Source of the DNA: Tribonema minus
Lineage: Eukaryota; Sar; Xanthophyceae; Tribonematales; Tribonemataceae
NCBI GenBank assembly: GCA_017506865.1
Contig: JAFCMP010000066.1
Coordinates: 124,001 to 188,000 of the forward strand
DNA: 64,000 bases
Direction of reading: 5' to 3'
Notes under the pieces: model-generated
Told to the model about the DNA's origin: nothing
Database searches by the model: none
What the model saw: only the letters and a program-made list of their open reading frames with translations
Shown: piece after piece, positions 1,861 to 64,000 of the stretch
Numbering within the stretch: position 1 is the first letter of the stretch
Layout of the letters: each line of letters starts with the position of its first letter
Position numbers and translations under genes: made by a program

Positions 1861-1875
1861 TCAAAGAAGTTTCAT

Positions 1876-4021: not shown

Positions 4022-7000
4022 TTAGAACTTGGTGAGGTCGCAGTCGTACTTCTTGGCGGCCTCCTCCAAGCCATACTTGTCTATCGTGCGCAGCGCCTTG
4101 GTGCTCAGGCGCAGCGTCACCGTGCGCATGAGCGACCTGCGCGGGACGAGTCGCGAGCGACGACCGCAACAGCGCATCAGACGTGCTGTTGTTGGGAGGG
4201 CACAGAGCCCTGTGGCACCACTCGAATGCAGATCACAGCCGCTACAGAGGGTGTACTCTTCAATTACGTGCTATATGCTCTATGCGCAGTGCGGTCACGC
4301 TTAAGCTAATTAGAACACATGATCATCGCGCCTTTTGGGAATGTGCAGCAGCTCAATACTGTGACAGACCGCGGCGCACAGAGCACATCATTCACGATGC
4401 GGGACTCTGGCTGCAGTGCCCCTGGCAACCCGCCGCGTGACGGAACATCGCCTTCATTGAGGTGTGTTGAGCATTAACAAGCAAAACCCCAACCTGCTTA
4501 CAGTCAGACACGCCACCCACATGCCGCAAACGCTATGAGCTGACATGCAACGCGCAAGCCTGGTATCTTCAAGTTGTCCGCGTCATCTGTGATGGAAGTC
4601 GCTGCGAATCCCCACTGTAAGCTACTACACTCGCCTGCACAAACGGCAGTAGAACGGATACATTCGCAACAGTATCTACCACACTCCTCATCCCCATTCA
4701 GGGACACAAGGAACTCCGAGGTTGTGCTTCAAGAAAGCGCTGCCTATCAACATGGCGCCTGACTGCTGAAACACGCGTCAGTCCAAAGCAGCTGGAAATT
4801 CACCGTGTTTCAAGAACATGAAGTGCTCCACTGCTTCTCCAATGTATGCATCATCTCTGAGGTGCATCAGCTGCTGCGCTGTTTACGAATTATGAGAGGC
4901 TGGACGCTCCTACTAGTAGTACCATGATGATAATATACTGAGAACAGCTTTCAAAATCAGCACAAAACGCACTTGGTCTCATAGTATCGTCATTTCATAC
5001 GACTTCGAGAGTACGTGTGCCCGTGAAGCATCGCAACTCAGCAAAACATGGCTTGCGAATGGTTCAGCACCTCCACGACCTTCTGCACATAGCCCCCCAC
5101 AGTGCTCTCGGTTGCCACTCACTTCCAGACTTCCTTACAGCTGTCAATGCGTGGCCCGCAGGCACATCACCGGAAGTCTCAGCTTCGCTTCAAATCTCAG
5201 AACCGTAACGTACCGCTCTCTGCGGTACGTAGTTGCAACCGGCACAGTGTTCTCAAAGGTATGCTGGCATCGTCGTCTGCTTTCGTAGAGTGCGTTCGAA
5301 CGTGTGACTCGTGCGCATATCAGGACTGCCTCAAGAGTCATAAGCAACATGTGCGTGAGAGCTGTTTATTGAAAGGTACTCACGGGACAAACATGCGCTT
5401 GGTGTGCAGGTTGACCTCCTGGACCTGTGCAATGCAGGGACAAAGAGAGAGCACACCACAAAAATTACAAGAACGGCTTGCTTTGGAGGATACTAGTAGC
5501 GTCAGACAGCAAAAGCACAACAGCTGGAATCAATGATGGCATCATCGACCGACATTAGCCAATCTGAGTCAATGTATTGTGAAAGGTGACTCGTATTGGG
5601 TATGCAATGGCGGTGCCTCACGCGAACCCTAACCCTAGCCCTGGTAAGCTCGGGCTGCATCACAACACTGCCCTCGAGCCGGCGCAAGCAAACGTACACG
5701 ACCGGTCACTGCAGCACATGTTTTGCTGAACTACAGATGGCAAGAAGCAGAAGCAAGCTCGTACTGCTGCGTCCTGCCCAATCGGGGTGCCGGCGCTGTG
5801 CCATCGGTGCAGCCGCCGGAGTGCGAACCCACACTCTGACTCCGACTCGGCAATGTGAGGGAACCTTGCGGAGCTACACGACGCAATCGCGCAATCGCGT
5901 GGCAAGACCGTGACCTTGGTGTTTTTGCTAGGATGCATGCGCTGCTGTAGTACTGCTGTACCTTGTACGAACTGCACTGTGGAATTTTTGGTCATCCTGC
6001 AACTGATACTCTACGCACTGGACTGTCACGACCACAAAACTGGTCCGACAACACCACCACGATCACAAGCATGGCAACAGGTCCGTTTGAACCTGTCCCC
6101 GCAGCGGATCAACAGCTAAGCGACTCTGAAAGTCTTTGCATTTGGTGAGTTTCTCATCATCACCAGCATGGCACGAATAATGATCCTGCCCTGTAAAAGC
6201 AGTGCCCCCTACCACGCTGCCTATGGTCGGAAGCAGGTGTGTAGCTTGCGTATCTCGCGCTTGTAACACGGCTTGCCGAGTGTTGCGGGCGTGACAGCCG
6301 AACATCAGTACAACTGACACTTTCGGAGGGTGACTGACACAATACACAGCGTGACCTACTTATCGAAGGTCGTGCTCACCGCCTGTGCCATGCACGCAGT
6401 GATCGATCGTGCCGATGGGGGGAAAAACTGTGTGTTGCATCGCACGTGCGCACGTACCTTGTGGTTGCGGGTGTGAGAGAAGGTGACCACGCGCGCCTTG
6501 CGGTTCGCAGACTTCCCCGTCAGGTCGCAGCTCCTTGTCCGCATGACCAGAGCGGAGGAGGCAGCTGACGCCGTATGGGAGGCCTGTGCAATAGCACAGG
6601 AGGATATAGAAGTACATAGTTGAGGATAATCGAACTTCACAGGCATCACGCTTAGCTGCCAATCTCCTGATTGCATGAAGTGTCTGAACGTAGAACACGT
6701 AGCAGTATGAAGTCGCAGCTCCTTGCCCGCATGACTAGAGCGGAGGGGGCAGCTGACGCCGTGTGTGAGGCCTGTGCAACAGCACAGAAGGACGATATAA
6801 TGATGTGAATGGGAAAGTTCAACTTCACAGGCAGTTGGCTGCGATCTCCTCCTTGCGTGAAGTGCTTAAGCATTACAAACGCCGCAGCTTTTTGTCCGCA
6901 TGACCAGAGCGGAGGAGACAGCTGACGCCGTGTGGGAGGCCTGTGCAATAGCACAGAAGGATGCATGTACTTAAGGAGGCTTGAAGTTCATAGGCATCAC

Positions 7001-7601
7001 GATTAGCTGGCGCTCTCCCCCTTGCGTGAGGTGTTTGAACACGACAGCCGCCTCAATAAGTGGAGTCAGCAACAGTCAGAGGAGGAGGCAGCTGACGCCG
7101 CATGGGAGGCCTGTGCAGCAGCCCAGAAATTTGACAGTTTTCGATGATGTGATTGGAGTGAACTGGACTCATAGCCAGCTGCATCCGACTTTTGTTGCAC
7201 ACCGCCAATCTGTCCTGTTTGCGTGAGGTGCTTAAATAAGACAGACGCCGCAGTATGAGCAGCCAGCATTAGACAGCCTGCAGGATTGCAAGTCAATTGC
7301 AGCTAATGCACAGCAAAAGGCAACCGAGCTGCGTCCCCCCCATGACACGATTTCGTCTGTTGAACATCATGTCAAACAATCTCATCACCGCAGATTCTGC
7401 ATCAACAGCGCCTTTACCATGGCAGTGGACGAGCACACTTACAAGCAGCGGATTTGCAAGCTCGCAAAAATGAAACTGTTTGGTTTGATGTCAGTGTCAA
7501 AAACTCACCAGGTGAGTGCCTGTGAAGGAGGTGGGGGCCGAGAGGCCGGCCACGGAGGCCACCGCAGCGCAGAGGACCGCCAGCACCAGCGCGAACTGCA
7601 T
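4022..7601 (-). CDS. rpl28: Plastid ribosomal protein bL28, nuclear-encoded, with bipartite plastid presequence
   Basis: Large-subunit protein of the plastid ribosome. Four exons on the minus strand: 7601-7509, 6583-6458, 5424-5384, 4136-4022. They give 124 aa; intron phases are 0, 0, 2 and all borders are GT-AG. Residues 1-18 are a hydrophobic signal peptide (MQFALVLAVLCAAVASVA), followed by GLSAPTSF and an S/A-rich transit region. Mature bL28 motifs follow: RSCDLTGKSANRKA, then VTFSHTRNHK, NLHTKRMFVP, TLRLSTKALRTIDKYG, ending DLTKF. Plant plastid bL28 has the same order and a similar end. The start is the only ATG giving a signal peptide. The signal peptide implies import through an ER-derived outer plastid membrane, so a complex plastid. 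Intron 1 carries three ghost copies of the exon 2 start. Confidence 0.93.
6711..7115 (-). repeat. Ghost array: three copies of bL28 exon 2 5' part with acceptor
   Basis: Copies of the start of exon 2, including its acceptor, lie in intron 1. The first exon base of the real exon is 6583; the corresponding bases of the copies are near 6771, 6940 and 7110. Spacing is thus about 188, 169 and 170 bp. Each copy keeps the ASHTASAA-coding part and then degenerates. Some acceptor AGs survive, but no intact downstream donor is seen. Confidence 0.85.
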
Positions 7602-12711: not shown

Positions 12712-15700
12712 CTACCGGCGGCGGTCGCGGCTGCGGCTGCGGCGCCGCGCGTCGTGCCGCCGCCGGTCGCGGCTGTCGCTGCGGGACCTGCGGCGGCGGT
12801 CCTTGTCGCGCGACCGGTCGCGCTGGCGGTCGCGATCGCGCGAGCGGTTGCGGTGGCGGTCCCCGCGGCTCCTGTCCCGGCTGTCGCCGCGCGGCGGCCC
12901 GCTGCCGCCGTTTTCGCTGGGGCCGTAGATGCCGCCGCCGCCGCTGCCGCCGTTGCGGCTGCACGCGGTGGGCGAGGGAGTGGAGGTCGCCTTGAGTTTT
13001 GCACACACGTTAAAGTGGCCTCTTGCCGTCGCAACGATGTGAGTGTAAGCAGTGGCAGTAATGGACTGTGTATTGCGTGCATTCTTTGTACTTAAGGTGT
13101 TTTTTGTACACTTCTGCGGAGGTCATGATGCAAGCTGTCGGCATGACAAACAGCGGTGCAGAGTGTACTTGGACGGTGTTGCACGTCATCAAATGCGGCC
13201 ATCAACAGCATGACGTACACACCCCGCATCGTTGCAGTAGCGAGATGTGTGCAGTGAGCACTGCACACCGCGTGCGCGCCAGACTGTTGTCACAGTGCTT
13301 GCCCCCTCAATTGATGTTTGCAGATCAGAGCAGCGCTGCCCCGGGTGGCAGTTGCGCGCGCCGGCGCGCATCGCAGAGCTAGATGCGCGTGTGCTCCAAA
13401 GTCTTGCGGCATGCGCTCTCTCGCACAAAGCCTCATGGCATGTACTCTCTTGCAAAAGCGGGCCATGAGCTTTTCAATGACACGCATCATCGCATTTGAT
13501 TTACACGTTCAAGGGGGGTTTGGCCACTTGCCAAGGGGCCATCACAGGTGACTGGGGCTCAAGATCACGTACACACATACCAGGGCGATCAATCGCAAGC
13601 ATATCAGATTTCACGAAGCATGTAAAATTGAGAGTGCCAAACTTCATTGACGCTGTAACAGTCCTGCCTGGTTGAGGGGGCAGCGGTCACTGGTGCGGGG
13701 CAGAGTCACACATACGTGTAACATTGACCTTTGCACGCAGCTCCTGCACCTCATGCCAGGGGTATCCAAAACGGCTGATGCGCAAGTGTGAAACGTCACA
13801 GTGCCTGTAGATTATATAGTTATTCCTGTGGTAACAGCCATCGGGAATACAGAGCTCACCTGCGCGGCGGAGAGTCACGCCTAGGCGCGCCGCCGCTGAA
13901 CTTCTACCGGAGCTCCTTCCACCTCATCTCCAGAAATATTTCTTAAGTCTTGTTTTTATCTTTGTTTTTGATTTTGTAATTTTTATGGTATTTACTCACC
14001 CGTTCGCTATGGTTTTACCCATTCAACTCGCATGTGTTAAAAATGGCTGACTTTCAACTACGAAACATAAGCGTACCATTCCTGAAATATACTATTGAGA
14101 CGACTGCGTGACCGCGGCAGCAGCGCTCACCTGCGTGGCGGAGAGTCGCGCCTGCGGGCGTCACTGAACTTCCTTGACCCCGTTTCCAAGGGTATCCAGA
14201 AGTGGATGACATTGAGCCACAATACATCACAGTGTCTGGAAAAGTCATTCCTGTGGGCTCAGCGCTCACCTACGCAGCGGAGAGTCACGCCTGCGCGCGC
14301 CGCCGCTGAACTTCTCCCTCAGCTCCTTGACCTTCTCGCGGCACGCCTTCCAGCCGAGGTACTGCTTGCCCTGGAAGTGGCACATGATGCGCTCCTCGTT
14401 GTCCGCGCTGCTCATTATGTTGCCGGACACCTACGGCAGACGTTAAGGGGGGGGGGGGGGGGTTGAGTATATCGAGACGCACGCTGCTCACTATGTTGCC
14501 GGACACCTGCGGCAGATGGGGGGGGGGGGGGGGGGGGGGGGGAGAGCAACTTGATAGGGAACATAACGCATGCTGCTCATTATGTTGCCGGACATTTGCA
14601 GCAGACATTGGCGAGTGTGTGTGTGTGTGGTGTGTGTGTGTGGGGGGGGAGGGGGGGGGGTTGAGCGACTACTAGTTGGCGATGATGACACTTCCGTCAA
14701 CACAGCCCAGACCTCAAAGGGACTGCTCATCGTGTTGTCGGACACGTAAGGTGACTGGGGGAAAGGAAGGGTCACACGCAAGCGGTGAGCACTTACCACA
14801 TCCTCACTCCCAACTAAAAATGGCAGGCTGATGATGTCATATTGCAGCAGGGGGCGTACGGTAGCACGAAGCATGAAAAAGGGAGAAACCAGCGCACGTA
14901 TAAAAGCCAGGCCTTAACTATCGGGGCGCTGAAATGAGCACATACGCCATGACAGTCATATCCCCCCCCCCCCCCCCCCCCCCCCCCCAGCTACGCATGC
15001 AGCCCAATGCCTAAACTCAAGAGGGGGGCAGGTGATGGAGCAGATGCCTACTCACGTCAAAGCGATTGGGGGTTTGTGTTGCCACCCAAACAAGGTCACA
15101 ACTCCGCCATAGCTGAGCATCAGATGCACCCACTCTCAGGCACTTCTTAAAAAACGCACAAGAATGCGAGTTCCACGTGTGCAGCCGCAGTTCAAGTCAA
15201 CTTGCATGGATGCATTCTTTGAAAAACCAACAGTGTACCGGTTTCGACGACGTGTCATAAACCAATTGGTGTAAAGCGGGCCTCAAACAGCTGGAGCGAT
15301 GAGCACTGCAACTAGTGCAGTGCGCAGGCACTCCAGCAACTAGCGTCCCACTACTTCAAGTGTGACACTACAAGTGCAACAATGGAGCCAGCGCGCACCT
15401 GTCAAGGCGTACCGTGCGCTGCCACCATACAATTTTTTGGTAGCATCCCTTAGCCCATTGTATTCGGGCTCATAGGCATGCTCTTCAATCAGTCGAAGAA
15501 CTCTGCCTATTCATCACTGTGTGCCAGTGCGTATATGACCTCATGTTGAAGTACGAGTGAGTCTGGACCCGGCTCACCTCGCAGACGATGTTTCGCTTGA
15601 CCGTCTTGATGGACGTGTACTGCTTCTCGATCGAATTCTTCTTCTGCTGCATCGACGCAACCTCCTCAAGCCGCGCTTGCGCCTCATCAATCTCACCCTG

Positions 15701-18700
15701 CGCAACAAGAGCAGAGCATCATTGCAGCTCTCGTTGTTGAGCGCTCGTGCTGCACTCGCATGCAATGCCTGCGTGACTGACATTGATAGTTCAAAAATCG
15801 TGTCGGCTGGCGTAATTGCTGCACGGAAGAGTATGCGGCGCATGCAGTACTTGCTGCATGGTGCTCGCGCCTGCCCCTCATCAATCTCGCCCTGCACAAC
15901 AAAACAGTATGCGCAGAGCATCGTTGAAACTTGCTTTGTTGAAGTTCTTCACTTGCATGCAATGCCGCCTGCATGGCGACTACCTCTGATTGCTTGCAAG
16001 CGTGCGATGCTTGCATCTTGCCAGTGAGCGCTTTTGCTGCACGCGTGAGTGGTGCAGTGCATACGGCGCTTGCTGCCTGCTGCTTGACAGTGCCAAGCGG
16101 CATTGCAGTGCAGAGGTAACAGCTTTGCGCCGGCAACAGCTGCAGTGAGGCAGCCTCGCAGCTGTACTCCAAAACGGTGATGCAGGTTCAAACTTGTATC
16201 AATACACATCATTCATGTGACGCGTTGCTGCTTATGGGGTGTTGTCGACGTGTGCTGCATCGCCGCAGCTTTGTCACCGCTGCAGCAAAATAATTGTCAT
16301 GCCGCTAATATTACATGAGTGCCTGAATTGACCAGCGTCAGAACTCCTATGCGTTGTCAGCATTCTAAACGCATAAATTCACCAGCACCAAGCAGTCAGT
16401 CAGTCAGGAGTCACCGCCTGTGCATGACAGCTGCATCCACGCACAAGAAGAGCTCTAAACGAGTGCTGCCAGAAGCTGCATAGCGTACTTCAACACAGCA
16501 GCCTTGTACCATGTGAACGCATCCTAATTTAAACAATAACCCACAACGAAAGGGAAAAACGCATTGAATCAACAAGTCTATAATTGAACTTTCTGAGTAC
16601 ACATTGATTTATAAAGATTTTTTGAATATCATAGATTAGTACTATCCATTAAATTAAATCCTCAATTAAGACTGGCCCCCAAACAACACTATGTAGCCGA
16701 AGAAGTGGCACCTAGAGAAAAATTATATATAGTCTACATTTTTTATATATTCGCCACCATTATTGTAAAGCGAAAAGACTACACTTTCAGATATTTATAA
16801 ATTGAAATTTAACATTGATTTGAACTATTTTTTCTGCTATCATAAAGTAATATAAGTGTTATAAATAAGATATCCTATAGATTTTAAGCATCATAAAGAA
16901 TACAAGTATAAATGAGATATCATAAAGATTTTAAGCTAAAATGCAAAAGACTTGAATTTCCTGAACAGTACCGCTGAAATTGAACTAAATTTTTTTATAT
17001 GGTACCGCTACAATTTATAAATAGAATAGCTGTCTTTTCCTTCAAAAAGAAACTTGCTCAGCCACGTCTCGAAGAAGAATTCAAAGACAAGTTTACCATT
17101 GGGAAAAAACATGGCAACGACTGTCATATTTACTGATATATTCTATGAATATATGCAAAGAAGGATGCCAGAACAGCAGAAAGTATCATCTGACAGTTGA
17201 CTGCACTTGCAATTCAAAAAACAACATGTTGAAGAGACGCAGATGCATTGATTGCTCACAAGAAGAGCGTGGCGACTGCAGCAAGGCTGAAATGTTGAAC
17301 TTCTGTCAACAGTCTCACTGCACTACCGCATTATCTATAATAAAGCCCATGGGGCGAGTTTTTTTATGAGTTTCCGAGCCCTGACAAAATGACGCCCCAT
17401 TCTTATTTTTCGTTCATGAAAATGTGCCCCCCCCCCCTTTTCTCACATGCATACGCAGCATGTATCCCCTGCGTACGTGTACTCTGTGCACTCAGTGACT
17501 CGTGCTACATCACCACATTGTGTGTGCGCATGCATGCACTGTCAGCAACGTGCAGAGCAGACAGAAAGACAGCTAACATTGTAGCCAAACTCACCAAAAG
17601 GCTCCTAGAAGCAGCAGCTGGCTTTCAAGAAGTTGAACCGGTTTCAGGAGCGGCGTGGAAGCGTGCTGCACCTCATGTTGGTGATACACGAGCTAAAATG
17701 GCTCAAACATTAATGCACCCCACCCTTTTTTTGTCCATATGTTAATGGCGCCCCACCCCCCTTTTTTCGCTCTCATAAAAAGCTCGCCCCATGGGCTTAA
17801 TTATAGATAATACGGTACTTGTGCTTCAGACAGCCCAGCACGTGTTGAAGCATAGGGCATTTTCACGCTTATTACCATTTGCAGGCTTGACGGTTACGGC
17901 AGTTACAGGTGCTGGTACACTGACTACAGTACATTCACTTCTGGCAGCACAAGACTGGCATTGGTCTTCCGTTGCACCGATCACCTGAATGTCTACCGCT
18001 GTCAGTATGAAGCAATAGCCTACTGAGCAGCAGCTCTCTATGTTGCAACATACGTACAATGATGCTTTGGCGCACCCTGTGTGCGCTGGGCTCCATTCGC
18101 TAATGGTACGGTGTCTATGCTGCACACAGAATCTGCATGATACAGGCTGTTCGCCCCTCAAACAAAAATAAACGTACAATGTTGCTCACTATACTGCACA
18201 TACTCTGCATGATGCAGGGGTTTTTCGCCCCTCAAGCGAACATGAATAAAGTACTATGCCACTCACGTCCTCCAGGAATAGTTTACGATGAGAAACGAGA
18301 TTCTTTGATTACTCACAAGATGCATGGCGGCCCGGCTGGCCAACTATTGAAGCTGACGGCATCAACACAAAAGTACCACATACAGTGTAACTGAATCACT
18401 TGTAATTCGGGCAGCTCAACACATACGTACAAGTTGTAAAAAGTACAAGTTACTCACGTCCTCCGCCAGCTTCTCCGACTCCTCCGTCTTTTCCTTGATG
18501 CCCACTTCAAGTTTCAGCAGCTCCTGCAGAGCGTCCTCGGGGATGCCGCTGCCGCTGTTCTCCAGGTTGCAGCGCTCGCGGTTGCGCTCCACCTGTCAAG
18601 TTGAAGTTTGAACCAGCAGGACAACAATGATGAGCAATGCTGCTGCCAGAAGACCGCAGCCAAAGTTGTTGCTACGCTCACAGTAGTGATGACAGTTGCT

Positions 18701-20466: not shown

Positions 20467-23279
20467 ATGGGAGGCTGGATCGGCACGCTGCTGGACAAGG
20501 CCGGCCTGCGCAACCGCCACAGCACCGTCATCACGGGTGCGTCGTAGAACGGACTTGAATGATTTTCCAAAATGCTGTCACATCATGTCTTTGCAGATCT
20601 GCAATTCAACCTGAGAACCTTTGTCGCGCTACAGCCAGCCGTGCGGGCTCGTAAAGAATCTTTGCACCGATCGTGAGCTCTATGCGTTAATCATTGAGGC
20701 TGGCGCTGCTGATCCTCGCACTCTTCGCGATCACGGAGTTTGGTCGAGGTCGAGCAGCAACCACTGTGACAGCTCGAGTCCGCCCAGTGCAGAGGCTAAG
20801 GTCGCTCGTGGATCCAAAGTGCTCGAGTATGCGGCCCTCGCTCACCAAGATACGACATACACCCTTGCTGCGCGAGGGTGCACTCGCTGTCCGTTTTGCT
20901 CATCGCCGCCATCCTTCCCCCCCCCCTTTCAGTCACGGGCATCAAGGTCACCTGCTTCGACACGCTCACCAACCGCTACGGCGAGCACACGGAGCCGGAG
21001 CACGTGGCCACCGCGTCACGACTCCTGGTGCACCTTGAAGATCACATGAGTCGATCTGTGTCTGAGCATCACCGCCCACTGGAACCGCGGTCCCTCACCA
21101 AAGCCGCCGGACTGGGGTTAGGCTGTAACCTGAGCACTGCTTCAGTGGGCAAGTGGGTGCTGGAGCCCGACGGCGGCAGCGTGATGTGGCGGCCCACGGA
21201 CAGCACCACGGGTCTAAGTTTTTGCCTGCCACCCAGGTGTGCCACAGTGTGTAGTAGTGCAACAGAAGTGCAGTTTCGCCAGTACGTCTGCCCGCACTTG
21301 CGCTGGCGGGGCTGAATGCGGGCTGCGCTGTGTACGTCTCTCCCCCCCTTCCCCTGACCGATGTTTGCGACGCCATGTCCCTTCTTCTTGTGAAACATTG
21401 CCGGCTCAGTGCTTGATCATGCGCAAGCATGTTGCACCGCGCACGAGTGCGGCGCGGCACAGGTCTCACACACTCTGAGCATCACCGCCATGACGACAGA
21501 TCTGCATCTGATGAGTCACTGCTTGTACAAGGTCAACCTTGAGTTGCGTTTCATTGCAAATTTGAACCCATACACAATCGGAGCATAGCCACCATGATGA
21601 GATGTGCATGGCCAGAATTGCTTGTACCAACGCACAGGTTGCGTGCTGTGCGGTGCTGGAGCGAACTCAGCACGCGCATCTCCTGTTTCAGAAGCAGGGA
21701 ATCTTGCCGGCTGCGGCTGTGTTCAGTGACATGCGTTGGTGCATGCCATGAAGTTGCAGGGACTGCGATAGCCATTCCCAAAGAAGCAAGCAGGAAACGT
21801 GTACTTTGAAGTATGGCTCATGACACAACAGTCACATCTCATAGTACGTATCTTGAAACAACAGTATTGGATGACGCAGTGCCCGACTGAGGTAGTGCTC
21901 ACAGAGCCCTGGATAATAGTGAGGGTAGTCACACCGACGCCACTGATCTGTGCTGCATCACTGACCTAGCTCATTGTTTGGAGTTTCCGCTGCAAGATCA
22001 CGTTGAGGTTATCCTAAGTGTGCAATGTCAACGCTCAGCTGGCCCTCGCAGGCGCGGCGACGAGACCAAGCGCTTCGTCGTGCTGAGCCTCAGCGTGACG
22101 CACGCGCGCATCACGCAGCCGCAGACGAAATTGTGCAGCACACATTGTCAGATCACCCTCAGATCAAGTTGAATCTTAGTGAAGCCGGACCTTTTGTGTG
22201 ATCGCCAATCACTCGCCCCCACAGGCGTGGCGACGAGACCAAGCGCTTCGTCGTGCTGAGCTTTGACGTGATGCACGCACGCATCACGCAGCCGCAGCCG
22301 AAGTTGTGCAACACACATTGCCACGTCACCTCAATTGAAGTTTCAGATCAATCTTGGACCATTGTGAAGCCGGACCCCTCGCCAATCACTTGCCGCTGCA
22401 GGCGTGGCGACGAGACCAAGCGCTTCGTCGTGCTGAGCTTCGACGTGGTGCATGCGCGCATCACGCAGCCGCAGGGGCGCGCGCGCGTCGCGTGCCCGCT
22501 GCCGCCGCTGCTCAAGCAGGGCAGCGCGGAGGTGGTGACGGTGCAGAGGGAGGACGAGAGCGCCGGCGATGACATCAGGTGCAGCGCTCAGTCATCGGGC
22601 AGAAAAGGGTTAGGGTTAGGGTTTTGTAGCCATTGGGATGAGCTGGCGTGGAAAGAGCATGCGAGCGCGGCGGCACAAGGTCAGGTAAGGGTGAGAGTTA
22701 GGATTAGGGTTGACAGCGTCGGACGCCGTGCCCGCCCCATACCTGCATCCCATGTGTTGGGCAAATGTAGTGGTACAGCAGCAGCAAAACAGAGTGCTCT
22801 GCGCGCGAGCCGGCATCATTGGCGGGGGTGCCGAGGGAGGGCAAGAGCACCGGTGATGGCATCAGGTGCAGTGCAGGACAGTATTGCATGTATGGTTACG
22901 GTCAGGGTTCCAGAGCAGGCAGCACTGCGTGTATGACGGTGCAGAGGGAGGATGAGAGCGCAAGGAATTTCATCAGGTGCACATATGTCGTGCTCAGGTA
23001 CTAGGCAGAATGAAAGGATCAGACTTAGACAGGCCGAGTGTCCAGTGTGCTCTCAGGGTTCACATCACGTGCAGCAACCTGATCTACATTGCGTCGCAGG
23101 AGCTTAGACACTGCTACTGCATGCAGCACAGCCCATCATGTGCGCTGCACGTATGTGTACGCCATGATGCGCTTCGCCGACTCAAGTACTTCTGGCTGTT
23201 GTCTGTTCTGCGCCGCTGCAGGGTGCGCATTTGGTACACAATTCAACGTACGCGGCAGCCGCTGATGCCCTGCCCCTAG
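20467..23279 (+). CDS. Unrecognised 202-aa protein, four exons
   Basis: I do not recognise this family. Exons 20467-20536, 20933-21236, 22402-22578 and 23222-23279 join in phase (1, 2, 2) with GT-AG borders. The N-terminus MGGWIGTLLDKAGLRNR has Gly2 and could be myristoylated, which is inference. Conserved-looking segments are GIKVTCFDTLTNRYGEHTEP, KWVLEPDGGSVMWRPTDS, RRGDETKRFVVLSFDVVHAR and GRARVACPLPPLLKQGS. The end is VRIWYTIQRTRQPLMPCP. Exon 2 is open throughout, but its middle (after SRLL, about 21030-21145) looks intron-like, so a further intron is possible. Two ghost copies of the exon 3 start lie upstream with the same acceptor phase, and exon 3-end ghosts lie downstream. Confidence 0.6.
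22048..22401 (+). repeat. Ghost array: two copies of exon 3 5' half of the unknown gene
   Basis: Acceptor plus the RRGDETKRFVVLS...HARITQPQ-coding part is repeated with first exon bases at 22052 and 22225. The real exon starts at 22402, so spacing is 173 and 177 bp. The reading frame is open in both copies up to the PQ codons. After that they turn into intron sequence without a GT donor at the break. Confidence 0.9.
22605..22710 (+). repeat. Interstitial telomere-type repeats (TTAGGG) in an intron
   Basis: GGGTTAGGGTTAGGGTTT occurs 27 bp after the donor of exon 3, with a second degenerate stretch near 22685-22710. Confidence 0.85.
22830..22985 (+). repeat. Ghost copies of exon 3 3' end with donor (unknown gene)
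   Basis: Two diverged copies of the GAGGGAGGACGAGAGCG...CATCAG|GTGCA end of exon 3 occur near 22832-22880 and 22942-22985. They place extra donor-like sites downstream of the true donor at 22579. Confidence 0.8.
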
Positions 23280-43600: not shown

Positions 43601-46600
43601 TGCTCCGCGCCCCTCTCCGCAGCTACCGCCAGGTGCTGTTCCAGGAGTTTTTCATATCTGAAGTGTCACTCTTGAAGTACACCGCGGTGAACCGAATGCA
43701 CGAGAGCCTGCAGCTCAAGCGCCACTCATTCTTAACCAGTTCTCATGTGATGCAATGATGCGATGGTATAATTCTTTAATGAATGCCGCTCTTGAAGTAC
43801 CAGTTGTCATGTGATGACAATGATGTGACGCTGGTTTTTTTGGTTTTTTATAGTGCCGCTCCGAAAGCACCAGACATGAGTGGTGATGACAGTGATGCAT
43901 CGTTGCTCTGCGCTCATCGCTGCAGCTACCACCAGGTGCTGTTTGAAGACACGGCAGTGAACCGCATGCACGAGAGCCTGCAGCTCTTTGAGGAGGTTGT
44001 CAAGAACCCTATATTCACCAACACGCCCGTATTCGTCTTTCTCAACAAGAAGGACCTGTTTGAGCAGATGGTGAGTGCCTCATACCGCTTGCTACTTCTA
44101 CATTCTACAAGTTCTGTAACAGTGTATGTGTCAGCCTACGTTACAGGACAATGCGGCAAACTCCCCATGCAGCATGCGCAGCAATCACAAAGGCGCCAGT
44201 ACACTACAGTAGCACATGCACAATGCCCATCAAGGGTATAGTGTCTATTGCCATACATACCTGGCCGTCAGTGTTTTGCGAGCGCCTGAGATTGTTAGGG
44301 TCACTGCGAGCAAGAAGCCTCGATAGCACACGCACAATTGCAAAAGGTCGGAGAGAGAAGTAGCAAGTACTTTATTTACTTCCGCTTGAGGAGCGGAAAC
44401 CGTATGAAAAAAAACATGCAACTCGTGTACACATGTGCTGTGTCAAATGTTTAACACATGCGCTGTCTACACTATAAAACGATCACTGACCACCAAGCTA
44501 ACTACAGCACGTACTGTCTGAGTGTGAGCGGCTGACGTGCGGAAGTAAGCACGGAAGCGATGATATTGAAGTTCGAAAGTGCGAGCGCTCGACATCACCC
44601 GCACCGACTGCAGGTTCAGATCAACATCAGCAGAGCATCATGCACGTTTGTTGGAAAGGAAGCGCGTGCTGATGATGCTCAGACACACGGCGGTGACACA
44701 CACGTGTCCACTTGTGATTATTACAGTAGAAGAGGAGCGCTTCTTGCAAAAAGCCGTGTTGAAGTATGGGCGGGAAAATCTCAACAATTGGAACTTCAAG
44801 TCACGTCAAAGCCCGGAGCGGCATCAGTCACGTCAACGCCCGGAGAGGCATCATCTGTGCACAGGGCCCTCTGGTCTTGGCTACCTGTATATAATGTGAT
44901 ACGGCGACAGCGGCCTTTAGTTACATCGTCATCCTCGCTCCTGTGCCAGTGTGCACTCTCTAATGAAAGTACCTATTTGCCAACTGCGCTGCTTTCACTC
45001 TTTTATTGTAGGGTTGAAGTCAGGGTCAGGGTTTGGGGTCAAGGTGGGGCTTCTGGTGTGTGTTTTGGCCTGTAAGGTTAAAGTAGGATTGGATTGTGTG
45101 CTTTCTCGTCTTGCTGGCAGCATAACTGCCTTAAATGAGCATTTATGGCTGCACATGTGCCGGTCCTGTCCCCTTCTCAGATTGCAAAAACACCACTGAA
45201 GGTGTGCTTCCCGGGTAGGTGTCCTTTCCCAGTACTTGTCCAATGACTGAGGTGTGGACTCGCTTGTGTTCACCATGCCGATTGTCGGGCACATTGCTGA
45301 ACGTGTGCTGCCCCTGTTCCCTTCTCAGATTGTGAAAACATCACTGAAGGTGTGCTTTCCCGCGTACGACGGGCCGGACGGCGAGGTCCGACCGGCACTG
45401 GAGTACATTGAGAAGAAGTATACGGAAGTTATGGACAAGGTGAGTAGAGGGGGGAGTCTTGGGGGACATAACTTCAAGTGTGTGCAGAGGAGAGTCACAT
45501 GCAGGTCCCCGGTATGTATGCATGTCAGTTAGTATGCATGCACGTCAGCATATGCAGAGGAGAGGCATCTGCACAATTGGCATTGACGTGTATGTGACTG
45601 CAGCTGGTTGCCCCCCCTGCATAATCCCAAAAGTGCCTCCCACAGCATTGTTGTAGACTAAAGTATCAGAGCATTGCGCCCTGTGGCAAGAGCACATGCA
45701 TGTAAAGCAGCAGCTGCGCATTAGTGATGATTGTCTGTCTACAAAGGCCTCCAGTGCGACTCGTGCATGACCGATCACTCGCACTGGAGGGTTAGGGTTA
45801 GGGCTACGCGTAGAAGTGACCCTAGCCCTTCTAGCTGCAGCCCGCACTGCTCTGTGTATGTGTCCACAAGCACGGCGTATTTTGTACTGCTCTTTGCACA
45901 AGAATGGCATGCATGGACGACGCCAACGCTAGCTCAGTTCTAGTCAGGGTCGGAATGTAAGGGCGCCGTCACCTGAGTCCGCAGAACACCATTGCATGGA
46001 GTTGTTCTTGCAGCCCCGCACAGCCATGTCGTTTTTGGGCTGACGCCAACGCTAGCTCAGTTCTAGTCAGGGTCGGAATGTAAGGGCGCCGTCACCTGAG
46101 TCCGCAGAACACCATTGCATGGAGTTGTTCTTGCAGCCCCGCACAGCCACGTCGTTTTTGGGCTGGAGCAAGCGTGCGCGTGGTTGTGGAAATCGCTTCT
46201 GTAGCCACAGCACACACTGTAACTCGTACTGCACTACGTGCTGATGCTGGTGACGCTGTGCTGACAGTGCGGTGCCTTTGTCTGTCTCAAGCGCTGATGG
46301 TGTTTGATGCCCCCGTTCGATTGCCGCAGTACTGCCCGGGCAAGGGCGTGAATGTGCATGTGGTGGCAGCGCGCGTGCGCATGGACATGAAGATCGCCTT
46401 TGGAGAAGTCAAGGAGCAGATCAAGGCTATATACGTAAGTGAATGGCGATTGATAGGCACATTTAAAGAACCTTCATACTTCGTGTTGTGAAGGCATGCT
46501 GAATGGCTAGCTCCACACTCGCTCTGATGGCGCTGTCAAGAATCACCTCTCTGACTGAACATGATAGTAAATGACCCCCCCCCCCCCCCCTGTGTGCGAG

Positions 46601-49394: not shown

Positions 49395-49602
49395 ACTTGT
49401 GTGCGCCCAGGTGTTGTCGACACAATGCATCTTGGTACCTGTACGACCAGGTGTTGTCGATACAACGCATCTCGGTACCTGTGCGACTTACTGCCGTACA
49501 GGTACCAAGATGCGAATGTCGTACATACAGGTACTGAGATGCGTTGTATGTCGTACAGGTACCGAGATGCGTTGTATCGACAACACCTGGGCGCACACGT
49601 GA
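49395..49602. repeat. Short palindrome built of repeated GGTACCGAGATGCGTTGTA units
   Basis: The left side begins TGTGCGCCCAGGTGTTGTCG and the right side ends with its reverse complement. Inside, units containing AGGTACC and GATGCGTTGTATCGAC alternate in both directions, with at least five unit copies. The whole tract could extrude as a cruciform. No coding sense was found. Confidence 0.9.
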
Positions 49603-52611: not shown

Positions 52612-53640
52612 GCGATGCTCAGATCATGAAGCCTGCTGCAGCTGAGGCAGACGTCGTCGCCCAACCGACTTTCACCATAGCTCGCACGGGAGTGTTTGAA
52701 GGCATTGACCAGTACGACCTGCTGCGCGCCTCACCAGCGGTCGCATGCCTGCCCCGCACGGTGTCAACTCTGTGCGCCAGGGGGCTCACTTAGGTCGATG
52801 TGCACATCAGCTGCCCGGCCTTGGACCCTGCCTCGGTCATCATGATGGCCAGGCGCGCCGAACCCATCGCGGCCAGCAATGCCGATTGCTGCGCCGCTGC
52901 CTTCACGGTCGCGGGGCTTCAAGTCAGAGTATCTGCACCCCAGGGCCTGCTGCCCTCAGGCATGGAGCAGGACAGCTTCATACAGCGCATTACGACCATG
53001 CATGCTGCGTGGCTGCAGCACTCTGGCTCGCTGGCTCCGCCAGCATTCCGCAGCTCCCCGCCATGGCTGGTGTGCGCGAGGCGCTCTCGTCGCTTCAGAA
53101 TCTCAAAAGTGGCGAGAGTGCCTCTCAAAAGCGGCGAGAGCGCCTCGCGCACAGCGGCCATGCATGGCGGGGAACTGTTCCAGGTTGCTGGCAGAGAGAG
53201 CGGGCCAGAGAGCTGCAGCCACGCGCGGCAGAGCATGCATCATGGTCTGAACGCACTGCGCGAAGCTGTACTGCTCCCTGTGTGAGGGCAGCAGCGGGGC
53301 TGATAGCCTCCTGACTTGCAGTTCTTTAAATGCGCAGGCAGCAGCGTAGCAGTAGGCATTGCTGGCCGCGATAAATTTGGTGCCCATTGTCGCCGTCACA
53401 ACCAAGGTACTAAGGGTAGGGTCCAAGACCAGGCAGCAGATGTGCACATCGACCCAAGTGGGCCCGCTGGCGCAGAGAGTTGACACCGTGCGGGGGAGGC
53501 ATGCGACAGCTGGCGAGGAGCAGCAGGTCGTTACGATACTGGTCAAAGCCTGTCAGGACTCCAGCGCGAGCGATGGTGAAAGCTGGTGTGGCGACGACGT
53601 CTGCTTCAGCTGCAGCAGGCAGCATGCGCCGAGCACTAAC
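52612..53640. repeat. Large diverged palindrome of a coding-like remnant, centred near 53,118
   Basis: Two arms of about 510 bp are reverse complements over their whole length, at roughly 80% identity by eye, meeting at a CTCAAAAG(T/C)GGCGAGAG core. Each arm read outward-in codes PAAAEADVV, then FTIAR, then GVNS/TVSTLCAR-like peptides, so it once carried protein sequence. I do not recognise the family, and both arms are broken. It is an inverted duplication of an old gene or element fragment. Confidence 0.8.
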
Positions 53641-53963
53641 CCCGGCGGCTGCGCACTAAGCAGTGCACACGATTGTTCCGCTTTCAAACTTTGTTTTGAC
53701 ATGTTGCAGAAGGCGCCCTGTTGCAGCATAAATAATGTATTTTCTTGCCCGTCACTACAGATCGCTAGCGCATGCGCAAATGGCACAACACGACGGCACA
53801 GCAGCAACACTGGTGCAGCTGCCCTTGGCAGGCACTGCAACTGCCTATCGCAGCTGCCAACTGCTGCTGCAAAACACTAATCTTGCTTCTGCAAGACATT
53901 GACCGCGTCAGGTCCACTGATAGGCCATAATCTGCTTTGCAGAATTTCATACTTCAAGAAGTA

Positions 53964-56900: not shown

Positions 56901-59900
56901 CCTATTGAACAAGTCATAAGTGAAGTACATTCTGGGAGCTTGAGCACCAGGTCTGTAGCTCGCCAGCAGCGCACGCAGCCACGCCTCTAAACATCATTGC
57001 AGACACTCAAAACATTTCATAAAAGCAGTAGGGTCAAGGTTAAGGTGGAATTGAATTGCATGTGCCTTCAGCAACCGTGACTATTCTCTTCCGTTGCTTG
57101 CTACACATGAAATACTTTTGAAATACTTCCGAGTTTGACATCTACCTCTAGGAGTATCCATGAACATTTTGCACAGGACTCCAGGGTACGAAGCGTCACG
57201 TTCCATCATCAGCTAAGCTGCAGCATGCACAGCACGAACGAGACCTGCAACCAATTCAGCACATTCATGACTGCGCACACGCACTTTGCCGAGCATCATC
57301 ACGAGGACCCCCACCTGAGGGGCACCATGGCGTCGCCGCGCATGTTGGCGTAGACGTGGCGCCGCTTGAATGATGCCAGCGCGTCCAGAAATTGGCGGCT
57401 GCAGGCCATCTGGCAGCGATCAGCGCCAAGCACAAACGCTATCAGGCATGTACTTGATAACTAAATCTATTTGGCGCTTATGTTTGACTGCCACTCTCTG
57501 GAGCGTTCTATCGTATCCACCCGGGGGTGTGGCCATTCACTGGCCTGGTCACTCTGTGTATGAGCGATGACACCGGCATGTATGTACAGGGGGGTGCTGT
57601 GTATGCATGTGTGTACGATGACACTTCTGGGTGACTTGCTGGCCTGCTGGCTACGTATCCGCCATGGAAGAGCTTGAGGACCATGCCTCCTCAGCACATG
57701 TATATATATCCGTCTAGAGTACATGTATACACTTCACGAAGTAAACATCTTGACACATAAACATCGCGGTGACCGGAATCATGTTGATTGGCCTGCTTGA
57801 CTTTGTTGGATTACAAAGAGATTGTAACTGGCACATTGCGGTGCAGGTCACATGGCAGCAGGCATGCAGCACATTGCCATCAGTGTTTGCTGCACCGTTT
57901 GAAGCAAAGCAGTGCACATGACTAGAACACTCGTGCAATGCCAAGCAGCCCTTGTCTGGTCTTTGCGACCGCAGAAGGCGGTGGCGACTGAGCTCACTCC
58001 TGTCGCCACAGCGCGTGAAACTAATTGCTCACGGAGCCCACCAGGCACAGATATGACTGCATGAAGTGATGAGCTCAGGTCTGCACATCCAAAAAAAGGT
58101 CAGACTGGCAACCCCGTATTTTAAAGGTGACCACACGCAGAACCTACAACCACTTCAGAGCCTGGCCAGAACTTCTGTTACTGGTCTTTCAATGCATGGC
58201 CTTCCCTCTTGCTAACACCAATTTCAAGATCTTTAGGTCTTGAGTCTCATCCTGCGCTGTAAGGTCGTACGCCACCTCCACCCCCATCGCGAGCTCACTG
58301 CGACTGCTGTTGACAAAACATCACAAGAGCATTAGGCTCCCTTTGATGAACAAAAATTCTCCGGCAGACACCGTGCATGTAGGTTCAAAGTAAAAAAAAT
58401 GCCATATATGTCGCGACATACTCCGCGTAGGAAAATACCACTGTCACCGATTGAGATCGCTGTGACATACCATGTCCGCCACTGATCAACGGCGTCTTGA
58501 AATGGTCAATCAGCCACAATCACCTGCTTCATCAGAGGCTCCTGCCCCTTGGCGCCGTCCGTCAGGAACAGCTCCCTGCCGGTCTGCCCAAAGAGCACTG
58601 CCGCCAGTGGCAGCATCACCCTTGGGTAGGTGACGCCCCACGTGTAGCGCCGCACGCCAAGGTGGGGCGTGGCTATTGTCTGCAGGTAGTGGAATAAGTT
58701 GAAGTCCGATCCGTCACATCAGAGTGATGCGTTGTCAGGTGAGGAAGTGCATCATGGCGCATGCAGTGCTCAGCAATTTCATTGCCTTTGGGTACATGAC
58801 GTGTAGCGCCGCATGCCGAGGTGGGGCGTGGCGATTGTCTGCAGGTAGCGGAATGGGCGTTGAAGTCTAAAGCTTCATGTATGTGGTTTGATGTATGTAT
58901 GTGGATGGAATAAGCGTTGGAGATTGAGCCTTCACATCGGAATGATGTGTTGTAAGGTGGATTGCAGCAGTACTCATCATGGCGCATGCAGTGCTCAGCA
59001 ACATCATTGCCTTTGGGTAGGTGACGCCCCACGAATAGCGCCGCACGTTCAGGTGGGGCGTGGCGATTGTCTGCAGGTAGTGGAATGGGCGTTGAAGTCT
59101 GAAATTTCATGTACGTGGTGTGATGTATTTGAAGGTGGATTGCAGCAGTGCTCATCATGGCGCATGCAGCGCACGCACGCCGAGGTGGGGCGTGGCGATT
59201 GTCTGCGGGTAGTGGAACGCGCGTTGAAGCTCAAAAGTGCATGTACGTGGTGTGATGTATTCAGTGGATTGCAGCAGCGCTCGTCATCGTGCATGCACAG
59301 GCGCTGAGACGCTAACGCAAGGCTGGGTTTAGAGTCGCTTCTCACATACTTCTTAAGGTAATTTTTGGATTGCTACTTGAATTGAGAGAAAGTAGACTCA
59401 GGGGTCATGGTAGGGAGTGCAACTCGAGGGTATGAGTAGGTAGCCCAGCATAAAACATGACGGTATGTTTGACCATTGACCCCTACCACACGGCCTCCCT
59501 GCCCCCCTTTTTCCGAGCCGATGATAGGTCTACCATTAACATGCTGCTGTTCACAGATGTGTATTGTACTGGTAATATACGCGTGGGAATTGCGCGCACG
59601 CGCGTGTACACATGCATACAGCAGCATGCTGCATCATGTGTCAATGCGAGGGAGAGGGGCGGCTTCCAGGGGGAAGAAGGCCTAGATCATCAGCCAAGTA
59701 GAAGAAGAGTGCTCAGGTACAGAAGAGATTAAAGAAGAAATTGCGACCAATCAGGGACCACGTTACATTGGGCAATGCGCGTCAAGTACAGAGGCGGCAG
59801 GCGTCGCACTGCTACACCGCAAAATACAGGGACTTACGCCCGACAATCAAGTACCCTTCAAACACAATCTGAAGGATAAGAAGCCGCAAACTGCCTTTTT

Positions 59901-62814: not shown

Positions 62815-64000
62815 CTACCTGACGGAAGGGAAGCTCGGGAGGTCGAACCTGCGGGCGATGCTCGCGGGACGGCGCAGGCCGCGCTTGGTGGCCTCCTCCT
62901 GCAACATAGCACATTTAGGAAGGTAGGTATGGGTTACAATGAGTTGTGTCGGCCAAAAATGCCAGCCATCAGTGATGCTGAAGTGATTAAGGGTGTACAA
63001 TCAGCTGATGCCACAAGTCAGGCAGCCCATCATCTGAGCTGGCTGGCACCCGCCCTGCCAACAGGGTTGTGATAGCTGGTATATAGCACATCTGACGCAC
63101 CGGCCCGAGGAACGCCCTGTTGACAGCACACAGGCCGTTGCGCACGACACCAGAGGGCAACGCACCCGCAACCGCAACGCGGCACCAGCATCGAGCAACC
63201 TCACTATATTCGCGCCTTCAGCAACAATTCAAACAGGAGAAGTACCGCATCATCACAACATTGTGAAGTCTCGGCGGCGGTGATACCTACGTACCCTCAG
63301 GTGCTCCCGGTCGTTGGGGTGCGCTACAGCGATCAACGCCTCGGTGCGCTCAGACGTGAGAGAAGCACCACAGCATTACGACATTGTGACAACGCGGTAG
63401 CGACCGGCGATACCCTACGTACCCTCAGGTGCTCCCGGTCATCGGGGTGCGCGACAGCGATCAGCGCCTCGGCGCGCTCGCTGAGGCTGCGCCCGTACAG
63501 GTACGCGATGCCGTACTCCGTAATGATGTAGTGCGCGTGCGCGCGCGTGGTGACGACGCCCGCGCCGGGCGCAATGGCCGGTACGATGCGGCTCAGGCCT
63601 TTGTGCGTGCGCGACGGGAGGGCGAGGATCGCGACGCCGCCGTCGGAGAGCGCGGCGCCTCGCAGGAAGTCCACCTGTTCGCAGTGGGGATAGAAGTACA
63701 CCTGAGCGAGAATTAATAAAAAGTACATCAGAGACACCTTAAACTGCAAAGTCCGTACATGTCTTGCACGGTACGACTGCGAGTACGCATTTCATGCATG
63801 CGCGACGGGAGGGCGAGGATTGCGACGCCGCCGTTGGAGAGCGCCGCGCCGCGCAGGAGTCGACCTGTTTGCGAGGGGCGCGTCAGCGCGGTGAGATGCT
63901 TTTAGACTGCGACGTCCATACCACAGTCTTGTACAGAACACGTTACTCCAAAGCAGTGTGCGTTTGTGCGTGCGCGACGGGAGGGCGAGGATCGCGACGC
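62815..64000 (-). CDS. Acetyl-CoA hydrolase/4-hydroxybutyrate CoA-transferase family, C-terminal part (gene continues past the window)
   Basis: CoA-transferase family I enzyme moving CoA between acyl donors and acetate or hydrolysing acetyl-CoA, probably mitochondrial (inference). Two exons are visible: 63701-63423 (93 codons) and 62898-62815 (27 codons plus TAG), joined in phase 0. Motifs of the C-terminal domain follow in order: QVDFLRGAALSDGG, AILALPSRTHKGLSRIVP, PGAGVVTTRAHAHYIITEYG, LSERAEALIAVAHPDDREHL, then EEATKRGLRR and the end FDLPSFPSVR. The catalytic Glu lies further upstream, outside the window. Ghosts lie on both sides of the 93-codon exon. Confidence 0.9.
63290..63356 (-). repeat. 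Ghost of CoA-transferase exon 3' end with donor
   Basis: The HPDDREHLR-coding end and GTACGT donor of the 93-codon exon (real donor at 63422) recur 127 bp further downstream at about 63290-63356. Confidence 0.85.
63795..64000 (-). repeat. Ghosts of the CoA-transferase exon 5' half, two copies, running off the window
   Basis: Sequence coding VDFLRGAALS...AILALPSR recurs at about 63799-63878 and again from 63961 to the window end. The same point of the real exon is near 63610. Spacing is about 189 and 173 bp. Confidence 0.85.

What the first reader, a model, noticed from the sequence alone, without database searches (positions are those of the whole stretch)
4022..64000. Window-wide exon-edge ghosts: introns built from tandem copies of neighbouring exon ends
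All seven genes carry tandem decayed copies of an exon end with its splice site in the adjacent intron. I count at least ten separate arrays: bL28 exon 2; LUC7 exons 5 and 6; unknown gene exon 3; PEX16 exons 4, 5, 6, 7; G-alpha exons 4, 5, 9, 10; lipase exon 3; CoA-transferase. Copies decay with distance from the exon. The pattern suggests a recurring mutational process that duplicates DNA across splice junctions and makes introns grow. Tandem duplication is a proposed route to intron gain, but I know of no described genome where nearly every gene shows serial splice-junction duplication like this. The novelty claim is inference.
Basis: partly seen in the sequence, partly recalled or inferred. 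Interest (0 to 1): 0.93.

Follow-up and report, generated by a model that had tools for sequence, protein, structure and literature searches.

The report
Exon edges repeated inside neighbouring introns
In this stretch of an unidentified intron-rich genome, many introns contain old repeated copies of the edge of the exon beside them, splice site included, which add to intron length and leave strong extra splice sites behind; the pattern is real, but why exon edges are favoured is not settled.

Summary
Self-comparison (E up to 1e-3, copies starting within 1.5 kb) gives 24 direct-repeat arrays, 23 in seven genes. 17 of the 23 cover exactly one coding splice junction and none covers two. Random placement gives 4.2 (maximum 12 in 3000) and 4.1. 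Restricted gene sets agree. Easier detection of conserved exons predicts only 24% junction arrays. These arrays span 27% of intron sequence.

Outside one locus, real-to-copy divergence is 11%, 10% and 19% at codon positions 1, 2 and 3 and 22% in intron, as expected for unused copies of a conserved exon. Two reader claims need changing. Copies do not decay steadily with distance (23 of 40 pairs). Their splice sites are mostly intact (27/28 AG, 16/18 GT) and as strong as their own real sites. Using a copy's site keeps an open frame in 1 of 42 cases.

Closest precedents: intron gain by tandem duplication (potato RdRp) and tandem repeats enriched at intron ends in plants and green algae. I call it a new variant of a known kind. 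Cause of the edge bias, organism and genome-wide extent are open; no genome or RNA was available.

The parts
6524..7276 (-). bL28 exon 2 (6458-6583) acceptor array: 3 further copies of acceptor plus up to 60 nt of exon start
   Evidence: exon model in frame; Pfam PF00830
13850..14328 (-). LUC7 exon 6 (14270-14430) donor array: 2 copies of exon end plus donor (CAG|GTGAGC; functional TAG|GTGAGC)
   Evidence: Pfam PF03194
14406..14609 (-). LUC7 exon 6 acceptor array: 2 aligned copies of acceptor plus about 25 nt of exon
15672..15966 (-). LUC7 exon 5 (15578-15697) acceptor array, 1 copy
22039..22474 (+). Unknown gene exon E4 (22402-22578) acceptor array: 2 copies, 73 nt of exon each
   Evidence: gene without family match
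22536..22981 (+). Unknown gene exon E4 donor array: 2 copies of exon end plus donor
25687..25884 (-). PEX16 last exon: 57 bp of coding sequence (25828-25884) copied at 25687-25745, beyond the stop codon; no splice site involved
26203..27351 (-). PEX16 exon 6 (27257-27523) donor array: 6 copies, up to 93 nt of exon end plus donor
   Evidence: Pfam PF08610
27499..28062 (-). PEX16 exon 6 acceptor array: 3 copies
28829..31099 (-). PEX16 exon 5 (28604-28840) acceptor array: 6 copies of acceptor with 12-22 nt of exon, four of them in 390-bp units 98% alike at 29282-30843
   Evidence: exon 5 alone has no Pfam match
31266..32011 (-). PEX16 exon 4 (31152-31298) acceptor array: 4 copies
   Evidence: exon 4 alone has no Pfam match
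36913..38017 (+). G-alpha exon 4 (36787-37031) donor array: 6 copies, long (up to 119 nt) and short (about 50 nt); those at 37243 and 37572 differ from each other only at third codon positions
   Evidence: Pfam PF00503
39503..40122 (+). G-alpha exon 5 (39475-39530) donor array: 2 copies
   Evidence: weak in the exon-only test (27)
43386..43986 (+). G-alpha exon 9 (43926-44070) acceptor array: 3 partial copies
45145..45366 (+). G-alpha exon 10 (45329-45439) acceptor array: 1 copy
58610..59297 (-). DUF676 lipase exon 3 (58524-58679) acceptor array: 3 copies
   Evidence: exon 3 alone matches PF05057 (8.4e-06)
63237..63479 (-). Acetyl-CoA hydrolase/transferase penultimate exon (63423-63674) donor duplication, 57 nt of exon plus donor
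   Evidence: Pfam PF13336
63579..64000 (-). Acetyl-CoA hydrolase/transferase penultimate exon acceptor array: 2 copies (cut by window end; acceptor position ambiguous)
45919..46165 (+). Intron-only tandem duplication, 123 bp x2, 99% (comparison: young, not at a junction)
32591..32711 (-). Intron-only duplication, 55 bp, 94.5% (comparison: young, not at a junction)

Best explanation
These are intragenic tandem DNA duplications with one end inside an exon and the other in the flanking intron. The copy next to the exon body stays functional; the other copies are presumably spliced out with the intron and mostly accumulate substitutions like non-coding DNA (the divergence pattern is shown, the splicing is inferred). 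Arrays then change copy number by exchange between copies (inferred from nested units in G-alpha exon 4 and the 98% 390-bp block in PEX16). The intron grows by the array length (inferred from array content and intron lengths, not from comparison with a relative). The most likely reason why old arrays sit at exon edges is that the exon copy is held constant by selection and acts as a fixed template that keeps the array homologous, re-expanded and partly refreshed, while arrays with both copies in introns diverge twice as fast and fade (inferred). Splicing must pick the innermost site by context, probably exon definition, because the copies' sites are as strong as the real ones (inferred).
For: 17 of 23 genic arrays touch exactly one junction and 0 touch two or more, vs 4.2 and 4.1 by random placement; restricted gene sets agree. 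With exons masked, 9 of 18 intronic arrays lie within 40 bp of a junction vs 2.0 expected. Real-vs-copy divergence outside G-alpha E4: 66/583, 58/580, 111/580 at codon positions 1, 2, 3 and 169/754 in intron: about r, r, 2r, 2r. Using a copy's site keeps an open frame in 1 of 42 cases. Junction arrays span 27% of intron bp and their introns are longer. The four most similar pairs are away from functional junctions, and one repeat copies coding sequence beyond a stop codon. The G-alpha frame aligns with solved G-alpha chains without an insert of the size of a copy.
Against: The simulation of detection alone gives edge arrays only a 1.25-fold advantage (0.703 vs 0.56 detected), so the template effect has to do much more and was not modelled. 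G-alpha E4 copies 37243 and 37572 differ at 0/40, 0/40, 11/39 sites of codon positions 1, 2, 3, which unused copies should not do. Copy-specific changes elsewhere are slightly codon-biased after correction for base context (p=0.03 and 0.012). Splice-site scores lie above a simple neutral-decay expectation from the present real sites. Only four young pairs bear on the age argument, and a 41-nt CoA-transferase exon copy at the window end is 40/41 identical.
Confidence: 0.5

Rival explanations
1. Splice-junction-targeted duplication: a mutational process (for example transcription-linked breaks or R-loop processing) preferentially duplicates short DNA segments across exon edges, and junction arrays need no special retention.
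For: Excess of edge arrays far beyond detection bias; only one local direct array in the 20,413 bp outside the annotated gene bodies; several copies at many of the same edges.
Against: The four most similar pairs are away from functional junctions; a similar repeat copies the PEX16 coding end beyond its stop codon, where there is no splice site; 55-56 of 72 junctions show no copy.
Confidence: 0.25
2. Some copies are functional: alternative or decoy exon ends that are used by the spliceosome and kept by selection.
For: Splice dinucleotides intact 27/28 and 16/18; site scores equal to or above the real site of the same edge (donors 8.23 vs 7.25, acceptors 6.60 vs 5.79); G-alpha E4 copies changed only at third positions; few changes at codon positions 1 and 2 near copied acceptors (9/180, 7/180 vs 32/178).
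Against: 1 of 42 copies keeps frame as an extended exon; in-frame cassettes are possible for 7 of 24 acceptor and 8 of 18 donor copies, against 82/607 control AG and 69/207 control GT sites; overall divergence fits unused copies; near copied donors outside G-alpha E4 there is no codon pattern (15/96, 18/96, 18/96); one LUC7 copy has a stop codon; copies score below real sites at other junctions, and real sites at array edges are, not significantly, weaker than other real sites (p=0.25, 0.16), so the score comparison may reflect the real copy; for G-alpha E4 no phase-matched partner was found by eye for copy 37243.
Confidence: 0.15
3. Ascertainment only: duplications are uniform and edge arrays are merely easier to see because the exon is conserved.
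For: Conserved exons do prolong detectability.
Against: The simulation predicts 24% edge arrays; observed 17 of 23, P about 7e-7; enrichment remains with exons masked.
Confidence: 0.07
4. Assembly artefact or an introner/transposon family.
For: The window holds low-complexity runs, a 390-bp block 98% alike and a 123-bp duplication 99% alike, whose copy numbers an assembly could get wrong.
Against: The best pairs that span a functional junction are 74-92% alike over at least 50 bp, too different for misassembly. With exons masked, four similarities between distant places were found and none links two arrays, so there is no shared element.
Confidence: 0.03

Closest known systems
[quoted passage not shown] potato RdRp case, PMC4974935, abstract and introduction read)
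   Same: The duplicated segment crosses an intron-exon boundary and carries its splice signals.
   Different: There a single event made a new intron. Here there are 17 arrays in seven genes, many with several copies, and the extra copies appear to lie within one enlarged intron; no new intron is shown.
Tandem-repeat enrichment near intron-exon junctions in 29 land plants and two green algae (PMC3887541, abstract and passages read)
   Same: Tandem repeats in introns concentrate towards the ends, most in Chlamydomonas and Volvox.
   Different: The passages read stress short motifs such as GT/AC and do not report units that include exon sequence. Here units of roughly 76-390 bp start inside the exon.
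Border-induced selection on introns (PMC9748784, abstract read)
   Same: Conserved exon borders bias introns towards growth.
   Different: A model of deletions and insertions, not of exon-edge duplication.
Tandem exon duplication and mutually exclusive exons (PMC9013439, PMC9741552: search listing only); Exonize (PMC12343006, abstract read)
   Same: Exon sequence repeated in neighbouring introns.
   Different: Those stress whole-exon duplication; here none of the 23 genic arrays touches both ends of an exon.
Introner elements (recalled; PMC4457414 seen in search listing)
   Same: Sequence carrying splice signals that increases intron content.
   Different: Introners are one family in many genes; no similarity between these arrays was found.
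Polyubiquitin dual-specific splice sites (PMC10809524, abstract read)
   Same: Tandem repeats carrying splice sites.
   Different: There whole coding monomers are delimited by AGGT sites and included in variable number, shown by RNA.

Membership tests
[quoted passage not shown]
   17 of 23 genic arrays
[quoted passage not shown]
   No RNA. In-frame cassettes are possible for 15 of 42 copies, somewhat above control rates
[quoted passage not shown]
   Breakpoints were looked at by eye only
Tandem exon duplication / mutually exclusive exons | Whole exon duplicated with both splice sites | tested here: not met
   0 of 23 genic arrays touch two junctions
Tandem exon duplication / mutually exclusive exons | Copies under coding constraint | tested here: inconclusive
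   Outside G-alpha E4 divergence fits unused copies; G-alpha E4 long copies look constrained
Tandem repeats enriched at intron ends | Repeat arrays closer to junctions than chance | tested here: met
   9 of 18 within 40 bp vs 2.0 expected, exons masked
Introner elements | One repeat family in introns of unrelated genes | tested here: not met
   Four distant similarities with exons masked, none between two arrays

The most novel reading that the evidence does not exclude
In this lineage exon edges are preferential sites of repeated tandem duplication, so introns are built largely from copies of their own exon ends, and a subset of copies (G-alpha exon 4, acceptor copies) stays splice-competent and under selection as redundant or decoy exon ends that the spliceosome has to tell apart by context.
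Probability: 0.2. Interest if true: 0.82.

Novelty: new variant of a known kind. Interest (0 to 1): 0.55.

Why it matters
If it holds genome-wide, it gives a visible fossil record of how introns grow: countable duplications with one foot in a conserved exon. It would let one ask directly whether exon edges are mutational hotspots or only places where duplications are kept. It also shows many strong splice sites a few hundred bases from the real ones, a natural test of how a spliceosome ignores equally good neighbours. In this window the arrays span 27% of the intron sequence of the modelled genes.

Tried and rejected
Chance or detection bias: rejected. Shared mobile element: not found. Copies as simple alternative splice sites: rejected as a general rule (1 of 42 open in frame). 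A ratchet in which array contraction is selected against at exon edges was considered; it would not protect copies from recombining with each other, and it was not modelled. Splicing-mediated copying (cryptic sites at the exonic breakpoints) was looked for by eye only; no consistent AG or GT was seen. Separate-haplotype or paralogue origin of the G-alpha E4 copies could not be tested. Literature: ten searches; among the papers listed (at most 20 a search, of up to 378 found) I saw none whose title or abstract start describes serial exon-edge duplication across many genes of one genome. Only open-licence PMC papers are searched. A passing guess at a brown alga or other complex-plastid organism (gene layout, signal-like bL28 N-terminus, GC) is recall and untested.

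Limits. Gene models are my own, made after I had seen the repeat list. bL28, PEX16, G-alpha and the CoA-transferase end are in frame; the LUC7 E6 to E7, unknown-gene E3 to E4 and lipase E4 to E5 joins do not keep frame as modelled. The unknown gene has no family match. Whole PEX16 matches Pex16 (3.4e-45) but its exons 4 and 5 have no match of their own. In some searches PEX16 exon 5 and lipase exons 3 and 4 had been sent in a wrong frame; one search repeats them in frame. The CoA-transferase acceptor was chosen partly from the repeat; with the other candidate, and the unknown gene left out, 14 of 21 arrays touch one junction. In the restricted sets, 0 of 3000 placements reach the number touching exactly one junction; for touching any junction 0 to 7 of 3000 do. 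In one search the looser criterion (better than every control tile) is met by 21 of 72 exon ends in their own intron (3.4 expected) and by 8 in the reversed intron. In one search the 67 listed matches include 17 trivial matches of the real intron flank and one intron-only low-complexity match; that leaves 49 copies, 46 with a mapped junction. Searches count the near-identical PEX16 390-bp units once (three rows left out); searches use the 42 copies with a mapped junction and at least 10 nt of exon; one search uses the 41 with at least 20 nt. One search left two and four uncertain splice sites out of the score matrix; one search did not collapse the PEX16 units.
Full report
WHAT WAS CHECKED. 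The window is eukaryotic and no genome is held for it. A self-comparison with blastn gave 107 hits, 102 direct, mostly at short distance. I built exon models by reading the sequence and by codon-usage scores and checked them with Pfam: G-alpha (1.8e-103), LUC7 (2.8e-59), ribosomal L28 (5.3e-12); acetyl-CoA hydrolase C-terminal domain (4.7e-32); whole Pex16 (3.4e-45), DUF676 serine esterase (1.7e-43) and lipase exon 3 alone (8.4e-06). PEX16 exons 4 and 5 have no match on their own. The seventh gene, between LUC7 and PEX16, has no convincing family match and its exon 3 to exon 4 join is out of frame as modelled. G-alpha aligns with solved G-alpha chains over nearly its whole length without an insert of the size of a copy.

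THE PATTERN. Clustering the local direct hits (E up to 1e-3, starts at most 1.5 kb apart) gives 24 arrays: one intergenic and 23 in gene bodies. 17 of the 23 cover a coding splice junction, each exactly one, 11 acceptors and 6 donors. Of the other six, one copies the coding end of PEX16 beyond the stop codon and five are intron-only, one of them interleaved with the G-alpha exon 5 array. When the arrays are placed at random in the gene bodies, 8.4 touch a junction (maximum 16 in 5000); exactly one junction is touched by 4.2 (maximum 12 in 3000) and two or more by 4.1, against 17 and 0 observed. The number of distinct junctions touched (17) is not itself unusual (null 12.6, reached in 545 of 5000): what is unusual is that arrays stop inside one exon. 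Leaving out the unknown gene gives 15/21; moving the ambiguous CoA-transferase acceptor as well 14/21; keeping only bL28, LUC7, PEX16 and G-alpha 12/17; keeping only bL28, LUC7 and G-alpha 8/11. No set is reached by any of 3000 placements for exactly one junction; for any junction at most 7 of 3000 reach it. With the exon sequence alone as query, 16 of 72 exon ends score 37 or more in the adjacent intron; no forward control tile exceeds 31, and the reversed own intron reaches 37 once.

NOT JUST DETECTABILITY. Exons evolve slowly, so a copy that includes exon sequence is easier to recognise. I simulated uniform tandem duplications of the observed unit lengths in these genes, with exon constraint and a matching score threshold: edge arrays should be 24% of detected arrays (20% without the bias); 17 of 23 has P about 7e-7. 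With all coding exons masked, 9 of 18 intronic arrays still lie within 40 bp of a junction, against 2.0 expected and at most 8 in 5000; these are largely the same arrays. The simulation used single two-copy events and uniform ages, so it is a guide, not a fit.

ANATOMY. A unit runs from inside the exon (12-119 bp of exon in an array) across the splice site into the intron. In donor arrays the copies lie downstream of the exon, in acceptor arrays upstream; the copy joined to the exon body is taken as the functional one. G-alpha exon 4 has nested units: long (up to 119 nt) and short (about 50 nt) copies of the exon end alternate, which suggests later exchange between copies (inference). PEX16 intron 4 holds four 390-bp units 98% alike. 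Junction arrays span 10,324 of 38,177 intron bp (27%), and introns that have one are longer (15 introns, median 1230 bp, vs 20, median 897 bp; p=3.6e-4; median 690 bp with the arrays taken out). Long introns also have more room for arrays, so this comparison alone does not show growth. With exons masked, no similarity links arrays of different genes.

ARE THE COPIES DEAD? Outside G-alpha exon 4, real-to-copy divergence is 11.3%, 10.0% and 19.1% at codon positions 1, 2 and 3 and 22.4% in intron. If the exon is constrained, the intron free and the copy free, one expects r, r, up to 2r and 2r, and that is what is seen. Changes found only in one copy are slightly fewer at second positions than base context predicts (24 observed, 34.0 expected, p=0.012) and more at third (37 vs 28.8, p=0.03). 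Near copied acceptors the first 24 exonic nt show 9/180, 7/180 and 32/178 changes by codon position, an exon-like pattern; near copied donors outside G-alpha E4 there is none (15/96, 18/96, 18/96). Among the translated copies one stop codon was seen, in a LUC7 copy; codons with gaps were skipped, so frameshifts are not counted.

SPLICE SITES. 27 of 28 mapped acceptor copies keep AG; 16 of 18 donor copies keep GT and the other two have GC. With the near-identical PEX16 units counted once, copies score as well as the real site of the same edge (donors 8.23 vs 7.25, n=18; acceptors 6.60 vs 5.79, n=24), above the 5.13 and 3.91 expected from neutral change of the present real sites. A caution: scored with a matrix from other junctions, copies (7.89 and 6.96) lie below real sites at those junctions (9.50 and 8.78, in-sample), and real sites at array edges are weaker than other real sites, though not significantly (p=0.25 and 0.16). 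If the ancestral sites were of ordinary strength, ordinary decay could give the copies' scores. Used as alternative sites, copies would keep an open reading frame in 1 of 42 cases; in-frame cassettes are possible for 7 of 24 acceptor and 8 of 18 donor copies, against 82 of 607 control AG and 69 of 207 control GT sites. General use as coding alternatives is therefore unlikely.

THE G-ALPHA EXON 4 ANOMALY. Copies at 37243 and 37572 differ from each other at 0/40, 0/40 and 11/39 positions by codon position, and from the real exon at 1, 0, 10 and 1, 0, 9. With the copy-specific rates seen elsewhere, 11 of 11 at third positions has probability 7e-5, before correction for the number of pairs looked at. 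These two copies seem to have evolved as coding sequence for most of their life, as alternative exons or as exons of another allele or gene copy brought in by unequal exchange. By eye, an in-frame joining of exon 4 to 37572 through an internal GTGCGC site is conceivable, but none was found for 37243. Unexplained.

WHY EXON EDGES? The four most similar pairs (94-99% over at least 50 bp) are away from functional junctions, though one of them, the 390-bp block, lies inside the PEX16 exon 5 array. Copies do not grow older with distance from the exon (23 of 40 pairs). A steady junction-targeted mutation process would be expected to leave some very similar copies at junctions; the sample is small, and one 41-nt CoA-transferase exon copy cut by the window end is 40/41 identical. 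I favour a conserved-template explanation: the exon copy stays constant, so edge arrays keep homology, can be re-expanded and partly refreshed, while intron-only arrays diverge at twice the rate. This is inference. It must explain far more than the 1.25-fold detection advantage, and I did not model it. Targeted mutation remains a serious rival.

KNOWN WORK. A tandem duplication crossing an intron-exon boundary is described in a potato gene, where it created a new intron (PMC4974935, abstract and introduction read). Tandem repeats enriched towards intron ends are described for 31 plant and green algal species (PMC3887541, abstract and passages read). Selection at conserved borders is proposed to favour intron growth (PMC9748784, abstract read). 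Tandem repeats changing human gene structures are described in PMC2812944 (outline and one-line abstract seen). Whole-exon duplication is well known (PMC12343006 abstract read; PMC9013439 and PMC9741552 seen in a search listing). In the listings of ten searches of the open PMC library I saw no description of serial exon-edge duplication in most genes of a genome. I therefore rate it a new variant of a known kind.

VERDICT.

Noticed in passing
52616-53635: About 1-kb imperfect palindrome (self-inverted alignment, 73% identity over 1065 columns), between the modelled G-alpha and lipase genes.
   Followed up: no
49399-49600: About 200-bp imperfect palindrome with short tandem units.
   Followed up: no
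1858-3153: Open frame of 432 codons with no convincing Pfam match; its 3' end and the sequence after it recur, diverged, in G-alpha intron 5 (39820-39973), and part of its end inverted at 23123-23183: possibly a mobile element. A pattern from its tail was not found in viral contigs.
   Followed up: partly
5625, 22606, 28968-29009, 39857, 45788: Short interstitial TTAGGG/CCCTAA runs at several places in introns; seven units at 28968-29009.
   Followed up: no
47281-47533 / 51075-51333 and 48021-48154 / 51483-51610: Two diverged repeat pairs in the same order about 3.5-3.8 kb apart (72-74% identity), intergenic: perhaps an old larger duplication.
   Followed up: no
7860-7988 / 8257-8385: 129-bp intergenic repeat pair 96% alike, 397 bp apart.
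   Followed up: no
7509-7601: Predicted bL28 exon 1 encodes a hydrophobic, signal-like N-terminus (MQFALVLAVLCAAVASVAG), which would fit a complex plastid; recalled interpretation, no targeting predictor was run.
   Followed up: no
12712-14430: LUC7 exon 6 (ends in phase 2) and the RS-rich exon 7 (open in phase 0) do not join in frame as modelled; an exon may be missing or the exon 6 end differs.
   Followed up: no
26002-27256: The start of PEX16 exon 7 scores 37 against the reverse complement of the intron before it (highest forward control 19): possible inverted exon-edge copy.
   Followed up: no
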